Part shown: positions 30,485-33,417 of the stretch, in pieces | Numbering within the stretch: the stretch's first letter is position 1 | Layout of the letters: every line of letters begins with the position of its first letter | DNA from: an uncultured Lachnoclostridium sp. | GTDB lineage: Bacteria > Bacillota > Clostridia > Lachnospirales > Lachnospiraceae | Assembly: GCA_946499505.1 (NCBI GenBank) | Contig: CAMMSL010000009.1 | Span: 33,317 to 97,316, forward strand | DNA: 64,000 nt | Reading direction: 5' to 3' | Made by a program: the position numbers and the translations under genes | The notes under the pieces: generated by a model | Databases searched by the model: none | Told to the model about the DNA's origin: nothing | What the model saw: only the letters and a program-made list of their open reading frames with translations

Positions 30485-31578
30485 GTTCACATGGTACACA
30501 GACAAAAGAGCCTCTGATAAGAATGGTAAAGAGAGATACAATGCCGCAGAGGAAAGCGTGGGGGATTCGTGCCATAGCGTTTATCCTCTCTCTTGTGACC
30601 GGAGGGATCGTGATCCTTATGCTGGGGCATAATCCATTTTATGTTTATATTTCGATGGTAAAAGGAGCATGGGGATCAAGCACGGTTATCCATGAGACGA
30701 TCAAGCTGGCAGTTCCCTTGCTGATCACAGCGATCGGTATCTCCTTTGCTTTTAAGATGAAATTCTGGAATATAGGCGGCGAGGGACAGATCCTTGTCGG
30801 GGCGGTAGCAGCCGGCGCTTTCGGACTTTTTACAGCTCATATCTTTCCGAAGCTTCCGCTGGTGCTGCTCATGATGCTTGCCTCTATCGTGGCAGGCGGA
30901 ATCTACGGTCTTCTTCCGGCGGTCTGTAAGGCAAAATGGGGGACAAACGAGACATTGTTTACACTGATGCTGAACTATATCGCGCTGGCGTTTATTAAAT
31001 ATCTGATGAATGGCCCGTGGAAAGCAAAGGGCAGCAGTTATCCGAAGATTGATATGCTCGTACCGGGAGCGCGTCTGACGAAAGTGCTCGGTGTGCACTG
31101 GGGATGGATACTTGCCCTGATTCTTGTAGTGCTGGCTTATATATACTTCAATAAGACCAAACAGGGATACGAGATTGCGGTTGTTGGTGAGAGTAATAAT
31201 ACAGCCAGATATGCCGGCATCAATGTGGGACGTGTTTTCAGACGGACAATGTTTCTCTCCGGTGCGCTCTGCGGTCTTGTGGGAATGCTCCAGTTTGCGG
31301 GAGCTGACTATACGATCACGGAAGGTACTGCCGGCGGAGTCGGATTTACTGCGATCACGGTGGCGTGGCTTGCGAAGATGAACCCATTCGGGATGCTGGT
31401 CGTTTCTGTGTTCATTGCAATGCTGGAGCGTGGGGCGAATGCGATCCAGACTCAGTTCAAAATTCCAGCATCGGCTTCGGATCTCCTGATCGGTATTATA
31501 CTGTTCTTCATGCTCGGCTGTGAATTTTTTATCACATATAAGCTGATCAGAAGAGGAAAGGAGGAACATCATGCTTAG
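30481..31578 (+). CDS. Nucleoside ABC importer permease 1 (YufP-like)
   Basis: A 365-residue permease of the branched-chain/ribose type (BPD_transp_2). It has about nine hydrophobic helices and the family segments NIGGEGQILVGAVAAGAF near residue 98 and NNTARYAGINVGR near 240, followed by GALCGLVGMLQFAG. Its ATG overlaps the ATPase stop (ATGA), and its end overlaps the second permease by eight bases, so the subunits are translationally coupled. It should pair with the next gene product to form a heterodimeric channel. Confidence 0.94.
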   Translation: MSSHGTQTKEPLIRMVKRDTMPQRKAWGIRAIAFILSLVTGGIVILMLGHNPFYVYISMVKGAWGSSTVIHETIKLAVPLLITAIGISFAFKMKFWNIGGEGQILVGAVAAGAFGLFTAHIFPKLPLVLLMMLASIVAGGIYGLLPAVCKAKWGTNETLFTLMLNYIALAFIKYLMNGPWKAKGSSYPKIDMLVPGARLTKVLGVHWGWILALILVVLAYIYFNKTKQGYEIAVVGESNNTARYAGINVGRVFRRTMFLSGALCGLVGMLQFAGADYTITEGTAGGVGFTAITVAWLAKMNPFGMLVVSVFIAMLERGANAIQTQFKIPASASDLLIGIILFFMLGCEFFITYKLIRRGKEEHHA

Positions 31579-32563
31579 TACTTTGAACGGATTGTTTATT
31601 GCGGCAGTTCTGGCGGGAACACCGCTTCTTCTTGGAGCGCTGGGAGAGATACTGACAGAAAAAGCGGGCAACCTGAACCTCGGTGTAGAAGGTATGATGT
31701 TTATGGGAGCCATCACCGGACTTGCCGGTTCCTATTACTACGAGCAGGCAGTGATCGCGGGAGGCGGAAGCCCGAATGGAATCCTCTCGGCGGCAATTGC
31801 CCTTGTGACATCCTTTATCGCGGGAGCGGGAGGAGCGCTGATCTACAGTTTCCTTACGATCACACTGCGTGCAAATCAGAATGTAACCGGCCTTACATTG
31901 ACCATCTTCGGTACTGGTTTCGGTAATTTCTTCGGTGAGTACATCGGGCAGCAGGCAGGCGGATATGTGGCAGTCACGGATGTGACGAAAAAGGCATTTT
32001 CCGGCTTAAACATTCCCGTGCTCTCGGATATCCCGGTGCTCGGACCGCTGCTTTTCCGGTACAACTGGCTTGTTTATTTTGCAATCATTGCAGCGATCAT
32101 TATGGCGTGGTTTTTCAGCAAGTCCCGCGTGGGATTGAATCTGAGAGCTGTAGGAGAAGATCCGGCGACAGCCGATGCTGCAGGTATCAATATTACGCTC
32201 TATAAATATCTGGCCACAGTGATCGGCGGGGGAATCTGCGGGATCGGAGGTATGTATATGAGCATGGTGACTACGTCCGGCGTATGGGTGCATGACTGTG
32301 TCAGCGGCTATGGATGGCTGGCAGTTGCCCTTGTTATCTTTGCAACTTGGAGCCCGGCGCGCGGTATGATCGTGGCCCTCATTTTCGGAGGCTTGACGAT
32401 CATGCGTATGTATATCAATATCCCAGGACTTCCCGCCCAGATCTATGATATGGTGCCATATGTGGCAACGATCATCGTGCTTGTCGTAACAAGTATGCGG
32501 CAGAGTAAAGAACATGCCCAGCCGAAGAGCTGCGGTCTCAATTACTTCCGCGAGGAGCGGTAA
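31571..32563 (+). CDS. Nucleoside ABC importer permease 2 (YufQ-like)
   Basis: A 330-residue permease, the partner of the previous gene. Typical segments are LGALGEILTEKAGNLNLGVEGMMFMGA-like sequence in the first third (residues 22-48) and LRAVGEDPATADAAGINI near residue 195, followed by GGICGIGGMYMSM. It has about eight to nine membrane helices. It is the last gene of the importer; the very long palindrome that starts about 105 bases downstream contains a terminator-like core. Confidence 0.94.
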   Translation: MLSTLNGLFIAAVLAGTPLLLGALGEILTEKAGNLNLGVEGMMFMGAITGLAGSYYYEQAVIAGGGSPNGILSAAIALVTSFIAGAGGALIYSFLTITLRANQNVTGLTLTIFGTGFGNFFGEYIGQQAGGYVAVTDVTKKAFSGLNIPVLSDIPVLGPLLFRYNWLVYFAIIAAIIMAWFFSKSRVGLNLRAVGEDPATADAAGINITLYKYLATVIGGGICGIGGMYMSMVTTSGVWVHDCVSGYGWLAVALVIFATWSPARGMIVALIFGGLTIMRMYINIPGLPAQIYDMVPYVATIIVLVVTSMRQSKEHAQPKSCGLNYFREER

Positions 32564-32647
32564 ATTCGTGTTTGTTGAATAGACACCGCTGTAATATAAA
32601 GACATACTGATCGAACAGCGGACACAGAAAAAGAAGATACTGCAACA

Positions 32648-32967
32648 CTATGATATGCATAGCTTATTCAAACGGATACAGCCGATATGATGCACCTTTC
32701 GGATTAGACGGGATTGTAATGCGGACGGTGACTGTGGAGAAAAGGGTAGTAGATAAACTTTAACCCTGAGATATAGCGTTGATCAGCCGGACGGACTTGT
32801 TTGAGCATTGCGAGTTGTCCGTCCGGCTGATCGTTTTTAGCTATATTTCAGGGTTATTAGTTTTTCTTCCCTTTTGTAACCGGAGCCGGAAGCATTACAA
32901 TCCCGTCTAATTCGAATACGTGAGTTATTCCACCGTATCCGATTGATTTTCGGACGTCTTATCATAG
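32648..32967. repeat. Very long imperfect palindrome (element 1) between the nucleoside importer and recA
   Basis: The 54-base arms 32669-32722 and 32892-32945 align end to end without gaps; their inner 25 bases match except at one position (32698-32722 with 32892-32916). Inside, AAAAGGG, TAACCCTGA(G/A)ATATAGC and finally a perfect 16-base arm GATCAGCCGGACGGAC (32781-32796 with 32817-32832) continue the palindrome to a 20-base loop. CTATGATA/TATCATAG at 32648 and 32960 extend it outward. The core stem is followed by GTTTTTAG on the plus strand, so it can also terminate the importer operon. It could be a MITE-like element or a structured RNA; it holds no ORF and I see no clear target duplication. 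Confidence 0.85.
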
Positions 32968-33363
32968 GATGTCTCTCCGGCAAACACAAATTTTTAAATA
33001 TATATTGCATTTTCCCCCTCTCTATGCTATTCTCACTTTACTGATATCGGCGGCGTTCTTGCTGCTGTATCTTCATCGCCTTAAGGCGTCTCATTTTCGG
33101 CCGGTTCCATATCGGAACATTTATCCGACAATGAATGGTAACTATTGACAGAATGACAGAAAGCCTGATGACAGAAGAACCAGGCGGAAAAGAGGTACTG
33201 TGTATGGCAGATGATCCCCCGATTTGAGATTATCGCACTTGAGATAGTGCGCCGGTATTAGTAGACGGTATTAGTATTAGAAGAGAAAATTTTAGATGAT
33301 GCCCAGAGAAGAGTCCGTTTTAATGTACATGTAAAAATGTATAATAAGAAAGCTAAAATGTTG
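32968..33363. other. Gene-free stretch before recA
   Basis: No ORF with a ribosome site is seen. The stretch has several short hairpins: CGCCTTAAGGCG near 33087, GTTCC/GGAAC near 33113, and CGCACT/AGTGCG near 33236, plus three copies of TGACAGAA between 33147 and 33180 and a repeated GGTATTAGTA near 33253. It looks like decayed or structured noncoding DNA. Its function is unknown. Confidence 0.5.
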
Positions 33364-33392
33364 TTGACATTTTACAATGAGTGTAATACTAT
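33364..33392 (+). promoter_or_regulatory. recA promoter
   Basis: TTGACA (33364-33369), 17-base spacer, TACTAT (33387-33392). A TATAAT at 33390 is also present but is 20 bases from the -35 box. The LexA box starts 11 bases further down. Confidence 0.75.
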
Positions 33393-33403
33393 AATAACAG
33401 ATG

Positions 33404-33417
33404 CGAACAACTGTTCG
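33404..33417. promoter_or_regulatory. LexA (SOS) box of recA
   Basis: CGAACAACTGTTCG is a near-perfect palindrome that fits the Gram-positive SOS box (CGAAC-N4-GTTCG). It lies just after the expected transcription start, so LexA bound there would block recA. Confidence 0.85.

What the first reader, a model, noticed from the sequence alone, without database searches (positions are those of the whole stretch)
32648..32967. A roughly 280-bp near-palindrome between the nucleoside importer and recA
The left and right 54-base arms (32669-32722, 32892-32945) are the same length and match almost perfectly in their inner 25 bases. The pairing then resumes through AAAAGGG and TAACCCTGA-ATATAGC to a perfect 16-base stem with a 20-base loop. 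As RNA it would fold into one very long rod; as DNA it could form a cruciform. It contains no gene and does not look like a simple terminator, although the core stem is followed by T5. It may be a MITE-like nonautonomous element, a noncoding RNA, or a site bound by a protein. Its place just before the SOS-controlled recA gene adds interest.
Basis: seen in the sequence. Interest (0 to 1): 0.7.

Follow-up and report, generated by a model that had tools for sequence, protein, structure and literature searches.

The report
Rod-shaped RNA repeat at gene ends
The odd palindrome beside recA is one damaged copy of a large, apparently undescribed family of repeated rod-shaped RNA elements that sit right at the stop codons of genes in gut bacteria and differ in content at the same site between species.

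Summary
The palindrome is real (fold z = -13.8) but longer than reported: about 32564-32992, starting just after the permease stop codon. It is one copy of a dispersed family. A covariance model of its core finds 38 strong copies in this genome, and matches 48 of 58 genomes of the genus (named relatives are mostly Mediterraneibacter MAGs) and 31 of 298 other Lachnospiraceae genera sampled. Rfam has no matching family. Helices change but stay paired (44 of 54 core pairs change on both sides), internal-loop motifs are conserved, and one strand is favoured, so the selected form is probably RNA. In 28 of 30 copies examined the element's 3' end lies at the stop codon of an antisense gene. The same stop-to-stop slot holds different modules, or nothing, in different species. 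This window's copy breaks the rule; it is inverted relative to a related genome. Mobiliser and function are unproven. Best guess: an exchangeable gene-end RNA element that shields genes from antisense transcription. The recA neighbourhood is incidental.

The parts
32561..32563 (+). TAA stop codon of the permease gene; the element starts at the next base
   Evidence: ORF 31571-32563; sequence; the same kind of junction in related copies
32564..32652 (+). One arm of a different palindromic module ('C-type'), left over from a composite element
   Evidence: Query 4-93 of window:32560-33000 matches G003:C70:97604-97693 at 94%, and 3-93 matches G000:C25:11071-11161 at 92%
32668..32992 (+). The A-type rod: long imperfect hairpin with conserved asymmetric internal loops; its left outer arm is missing in this copy
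   Evidence: Alignment with other copies; consensus fold of 16 other rods with 106 pairs
32726..32892 (+). Core matched by covariance model R1 (166.7 bits)
   Evidence: G000:C9:66042-66208, converted with window = G000:C9:33317-97316; the window copy is itself one of the 28 sequences of the model
32781..32832 (+). Apical 16-bp stem with 20-nt loop; the stem sequence differs between copies but stays paired, while the loop TGAG(N5-6)YGAGTT is largely conserved
32833..32839 (+). GTTTTTA, the 3' side of a conserved internal loop next to the apical stem; U-run on this strand only
32980..32992 (+). Right terminus GCAAACACAAATT, inverted match to the left terminus ATTCGTGTTTG

Best explanation
The palindrome is a copy, here inverted and partly deleted, of a multi-copy family of about 390-nt rod-shaped RNA elements of Lachnospiraceae, best seen in Mediterraneibacter. 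Shown: dispersed copies; RNA-type covariation with one strand favoured and with conserved internal loops and apical loop; a fixed position and orientation, the rod's 3' end lying at, usually touching, the stop codon of an antisense gene; two rods in one slot pointing outward; different modules at the same stop-to-stop slot in different species; gene pairs that differ between genomes with the change lying at the element. Inferred: copies spread and are swapped by recombination between shared termini and arms, or by an unidentified enzyme. The likely function is a gene-end barrier: RNA polymerase approaching a gene's 3' end in antisense transcribes the rod, whose structure (apical hairpin plus U-run, and loops that may bind a factor) ends or processes that transcript before it enters the gene. 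About 0.9 for a structured-RNA repeat family; about 0.35 for the barrier function.
For: Copies: 38 strong cores in this genome, 48 of 58 genus genomes, 32 of 299 family genomes, both counts including this one. Pairing: 44 of 54 core pairs with changes on both sides; 95.9% of cells paired against 76.5% in column shuffles and 36-44% with partners slid; 16 full rods: 106 pairs, 45 changed on both sides. Strand: + folds better than - in 29 of 30 elements, mean -18.7 kcal/mol; in Watson-Crick-only folds, single mismatches are G-U 79, A-C 41; in the core alignment G-U 126 against A-C 11, or 75 against 11 without GU-dominated columns. Position: an antisense stop (70 or more open codons) 60-140 nt after the core in 28 of 30 copies of this genome, against 0-2 of 30 in each of nine other 40-nt bins; in 24 loci of other Mediterraneibacter, 19 (list). 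Orientation: the 7 pairs of full cores less than 700 nt apart are all divergent. Slots: one convergent gene pair is empty in G042, C-only in G003, C+A in G019 and G052, other modules in G000; a second slot varies among five genomes.
Against: No transcript data. The window copy has the orientation that the barrier idea does not predict. In 9 loci from other genera only 3 have the antisense stop 60-140 nt after the core. A barrier does not explain the conserved internal loops. Ten of 58 genus genomes had no match. Shuffles ignore relatedness of copies, and the RNAalifold structure admits G-U but not A-C, so the 126-to-11 count is biased; G-U excess could also reflect strand-biased C-to-T mutation.
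Confidence: 0.45

Rival explanations
1. A purely selfish palindromic repeat (REP/BIME- or MITE-like) moved in trans by an unidentified enzyme that targets gene ends; the RNA structure only serves its own spread.
For: Different interiors share similar inverted termini (about ATTCG...CGAAT), and modules A-D occur in different combinations at the same slot. REPs also favour 3' ends and convergent gene pairs (PMC3733652, passages).
Against: The RAYT-like gene loci carry no A-type element, and element-rich genomes G067, G071, G051 and G069 had no Y1 hit. No RVT_1 hit in G000 or G052. No near-identical full-length copies among the 20 G052 loci compared. No clear target duplication. Random insertion does not explain junctions at the stop codon with TAA, TGA and TAG alike.
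Confidence: 0.33
2. A trans-acting or cis-antisense small RNA: the + strand RNA pairs with the 3' UTRs of the genes whose ends it abuts, including those of other copies.
For: The + strand is antisense to the region after the abutting gene in 28 of 30 copies, and the longer DNA matches between copies are 70-91% identical, so cross-pairing is possible.
Against: No conserved promoter was seen by eye; the scan of the window region found 5 promoter-like sites against 2.7 expected, one of them the recA promoter. The RNA is mostly self-paired, which leaves little free for target pairing.
Confidence: 0.12
3. A DNA-level element: cruciform or protein-binding palindrome for chromosome organisation or recombination.
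For: Long paired stretches; at 2 of 6 comparable sites the gene pair around the element differs between G052 and G000; the element is inverted between G000 and G003.
Against: The strand asymmetry (29 of 30 fold better on one strand; G-U excess) is not expected for a DNA palindrome.
Confidence: 0.08

Closest known systems
REP / BIME / REPIN elements (IS200/IS605-type RAYT-associated palindromes)
   Same: Dispersed extragenic palindromes, mostly 3' of genes and between unidirectional or convergent genes; inverted pairs; G-T pairing taken as a sign of transcription; some REPs supply a stop codon (PMC3733652, passages; PMC8266576, passages).
   Different: REPs are 20-50 nt with a GTAG or CGTC foot. 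These rods are about 390 nt with a conserved apical loop and internal-loop motifs, a fixed antisense orientation at the stop codon, and no A-type element at the RAYT gene.
MITEs
   Same: Non-coding, multi-copy, inverted terminal similarity.
   Different: No parent transposase or target duplication demonstrated; strong covariation with conserved loops; position at the stop codon. (MITE definition recalled.)
Palindromic structured-RNA candidates of human microbiomes (PMC8040213)
   Same: That survey reports 250 palindromic candidates, 230 predicted to form intrinsic terminators (passages).
   Different: The four examples named in the passages are 80-132 bp, mostly or entirely from Bacteroidetes.
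Intrinsic terminators
   Same: Stem-loop followed by a U-run at gene 3' ends.
   Different: Long loop, often A-T-rich stem, U-run interrupted in some copies, embedded at the tip of a long rod.

Membership tests
REP/BIME/REPIN | Palindrome of about 20-50 nt, single or as an inverted pair | tested here: not met
   Rods of about 390 nt; size of REPs from PMC3733652 and PMC8266576
REP/BIME/REPIN | GTAG or CGTC tetranucleotide at the foot | tested here: not met
   A-type termini are about ATTCGTGTTTG..CAAACACGAAT, judged by eye
REP/BIME/REPIN | Associated RAYT transposase flanked by the same element | tested here: not met
   No hit of the A-type profile at E <= 10 in 7 RAYT-like loci; other module types were checked only by BLAST against the loci then held, one 59-bp match
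REP/BIME/REPIN | Extragenic, 3' of genes, often between convergent genes | tested here: met
MITE | Inverted terminal repeats | tested here: met
   by eye
MITE | Target-site duplication | tested here: inconclusive
   Empty slot in G042 has overlapping stops and could not be aligned base by base
MITE | Transposase source with the same ends | tested here: inconclusive
   Only Y1_Tnp and RVT_1 were searched; other transposase families were not
Any Rfam 15 family | Match at the gathering score | tested here: not met
   Window: only a tRNA elsewhere; 18 loci: none; permissive scan of the window element gave four sub-threshold hits
Intrinsic terminator | Strong stem directly followed by a U-run | tested here: inconclusive
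   U-run on + strand but interrupted in some copies; not flagged by the scan
Retroelement using an RVT_1 reverse transcriptase | RVT_1 protein in genomes rich in the element | tested here: not met
   No hit in G000 or G052, both rich in the element; 28 of 58 genus genomes do have RVT_1
Structured noncoding RNA | Compensatory base changes | tested here: met
Structured noncoding RNA | Transcribed | not testable with these tools
   No RNA-seq available

The most novel reading that the evidence does not exclude
A new class of bacterial gene-end RNA: a rod with conserved loop motifs, scattered through the Lachnospiraceae, that is placed antisense with its 3' end at a stop codon, recognised by an unknown protein or by RNA polymerase, and kept as an exchangeable cassette that insulates genes from convergent transcription.
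Probability: 0.3. Interest if true: 0.85.

Novelty: new variant of a known kind. Interest (0 to 1): 0.64.

Why it matters
If right, dozens of gene ends per genome in some gut bacteria carry the same large RNA device, placed within a few bases of the stop codon and swapped between sites. That would make two questions directly testable: how bacteria keep convergent genes from interfering, and how repeats find gene ends. The repeats also lie at contig ends of several draft genomes and at points where gene order differs between species.

Tried and rejected
Protein-coding origin: both arms can be read as FGSGGIVM-like peptides, but changes between copies do not look synonymous (judged by eye); dropped. 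Reverse-transcription origin: no RVT_1 hit in element-rich G000 and G052. RAYT origin: the seven RAYT-like loci hold no A-type element, and G067, G071, G051 and G069, all rich in the element, had no Y1 hit. Rfam, permissive scan: only microRNA-like and other sub-threshold hits. Recent transposition in G052: among 20 loci the 45 largest matches listed are 75-92% identical. The single Myxococcota hit (L117) reads like a coding sequence and was treated as chance.

Literature: the nine searches that ran showed no description of this family in their listings; I saw titles and starts of abstracts, and passages of three papers only. Searches returned no paper at all, and one search returned mostly eukaryotic work. 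Subscription papers and preprints are not in the library.

Limits of the counts: context was measured on 30 of the 38 strong cores of this genome (locus cap), on 24 other Mediterraneibacter loci (L131 has too little flank to judge) and on 9 from other genera; L155-L159 were left out because their strand was not listed. Scored candidates were capped at 50 per genome and 9, with stricter filters, so copy numbers there are lower bounds. Module names A-D are mine; B, C and D were assigned by eye and by BLAST or profile similarity.

Full report
Observation. The window lies at G000:C9:33317-97316 of a 3.08-Mb, 84-contig genome. Positions 32640-32980 fold as RNA to -161.5 kcal/mol, z = -13.8 against 100 shuffles.

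A dispersed family. A DNA search of the same genome gave long matches of 70-91% identity on many contigs, with shorter ones besides. In a search of 41 genomes, 12 including the own genome matched the DNA query, all of the same genus. A degenerate motif of the apical loop found 40 stretches in a collection of named genomes; 39 are from MAGs titled Mediterraneibacter, Lachnospiraceae, Lachnoclostridium, Ruminococcus or Eubacteriales, and one, in a Myxococcota record, looks like chance. The host of the window is therefore most likely a Mediterraneibacter species; no tool gave its name. Contig lengths suggest that G052 is the record titled Ca. M. faecavium and G003 the one titled Ca. M. surreyensis.

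The core as RNA. I aligned 28 cores, the window copy among them (A1). Of 54 consensus pairs, 44 have at least one sequence changed on both sides with the pair kept. In a direct count 95.9% of cells are paired, against 76.5% in column shuffles and 36-44% when partners are slid. For 16 full rods 106 pairs were predicted and 45 have changes on both sides. The apical stem differs wholesale between copies while the loop TGAG(N5-6)YGAGTT, the GYTTTTAG side of an internal loop and the TTAG/TTA motifs are largely conserved. The strand matters: the + strand is more stable in 29 of 30 elements, and in folds that allow only Watson-Crick pairs the single mismatches are G-U 79 times and A-C 41 times. In the core alignment the ratio is 126 to 11, or 75 to 11 without columns where G-U is commonest, but that structure was predicted with G-U allowed. 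This favours selection on an RNA of the + strand; related copies are not independent, and strand-biased mutation could add to it.

Extent. The covariance model R1 finds 38 cores of 103-179 bits in this genome; the remaining 8 of 46 rows are weak, truncated or reverse-strand echoes. It matches 48 of 58 genus genomes and 32 of 299 family genomes, each count including this genome. Nine distant loci that I read keep most of the loop motifs but not the outer arms. Rfam 15 has no match to the element in the window or in 18 loci.

Position rule. For 30 of the 38 cores I had flanks. With ORFs of at least 90 codons, an antisense gene's stop lies 84-108 nt beyond the core in 24 of 30. Asking for an antisense stop with at least 70 open codons 60-140 nt beyond the core gave 28 of 30, with TAA 21, TGA 4 and TAG 3. 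Nine other 40-nt bins between -20 and 420 gave 0-2 of 30 each. In 24 loci of other Mediterraneibacter, 19 have such a stop within 60-140 nt (list); in the binned count there the two bins hold 15 and 4 of 23, and the other bins 0-4 of 21-23. In 9 loci of other genera 3 have it within 60-140 nt and 6 within 140 nt, so the rule is looser there or unproven. The two exceptions in this genome are L167 and the window copy, L169. Two full cores less than 700 nt apart are divergent in 7 of 7 cases; two further slots with one truncated partner agree. This follows if each rod belongs to the gene whose stop it touches.

Exchange and rearrangement. At one convergent gene pair G042 has no element and overlapping stop codons, G003 has only a C module, G019 and G052 have C plus A, and G000 has other modules at two contig ends. 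At a second pair five genomes hold at least four different contents, G070 and G000 sharing an extra gene, and the neighbouring gene's TAG stop is kept in all five. Comparing 20 G052 loci with the G000 loci held, 6 had both flanks identified: 4 keep their gene pair and 2 join genes that lie at different elements in G000 (glyA with the gene of L172; aroA with recA). At the recA site G003 has the A and C parts on the opposite strand to G000 while recA keeps its direction, and G003 obeys the position rule. I therefore read the window copy as an inverted and partly deleted derivative. In G041 and G004, which lack the element there, hairpin-plus-T sequences overlap the permease stop codon.

Mobiliser. 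A mostly single-copy RAYT-like gene of about 275 codons occurs in many of these genomes, but seven such loci carry no A-type element, and four element-rich genomes had no Y1 hit. RVT_1 was not found in G000 or G052. Other enzyme families were not searched. The 45 largest matches listed between 20 G052 loci are 75-92% identical, so I saw no sign of a recent jump there.

Function. I prefer a barrier to antisense transcription at the gene's end because it accounts together for orientation, the stop-codon junction, the strand bias and the outward pairs. It does not explain the conserved loops, the U-run is imperfect in some copies, and no expression data exist here. A selfish repeat with an unknown mobiliser is nearly as likely. 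REPs are the nearest known kind: they also lie 3' of genes and between convergent genes, show G-T pairing and can supply a stop codon (PMC3733652, passages), but their size, foot and RAYT link are not met here. The listings of the nine searches that ran showed no paper on this family; that covers only the open-access library.

Noticed in passing
L213 1948-2775 (G000:C16), also L214-L219: RAYT-like Y1 transposase gene at the same place beside a glyS-like gene (by eye) in 7 of 7 loci looked at; not linked to this element.
   Followed up: partly
L222, L229, L243, L255 and loci such as L100, L105, L107: Contig ends coincide with these elements in several drafts, so they may fragment short-read assemblies.
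   Followed up: no
G003 and G062, for example G003:C31:11717-12353 and C60:61223-61855: A C-type module is frequent there, often as back-to-back inverted pairs.
   Followed up: no
L242 and L255 (second slot, G070 and G000): What looks like an extra short gene lies inside the stop-to-stop slot together with B-type hairpins.
   Followed up: no
L065, L066 (G041, G004): Terminator-like hairpins overlap the permease stop codon where the element is absent.
   Followed up: partly
window 33364-33417: recA promoter-like site TTGACA-17-TACTAT followed by CGAACAACTGTTCG, which looks like a LexA box (recalled motif).
   Followed up: no
G052 (L208) against G000: aroA rather than the permease precedes recA in G052, whose RecA is 98% identical.
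   Followed up: partly
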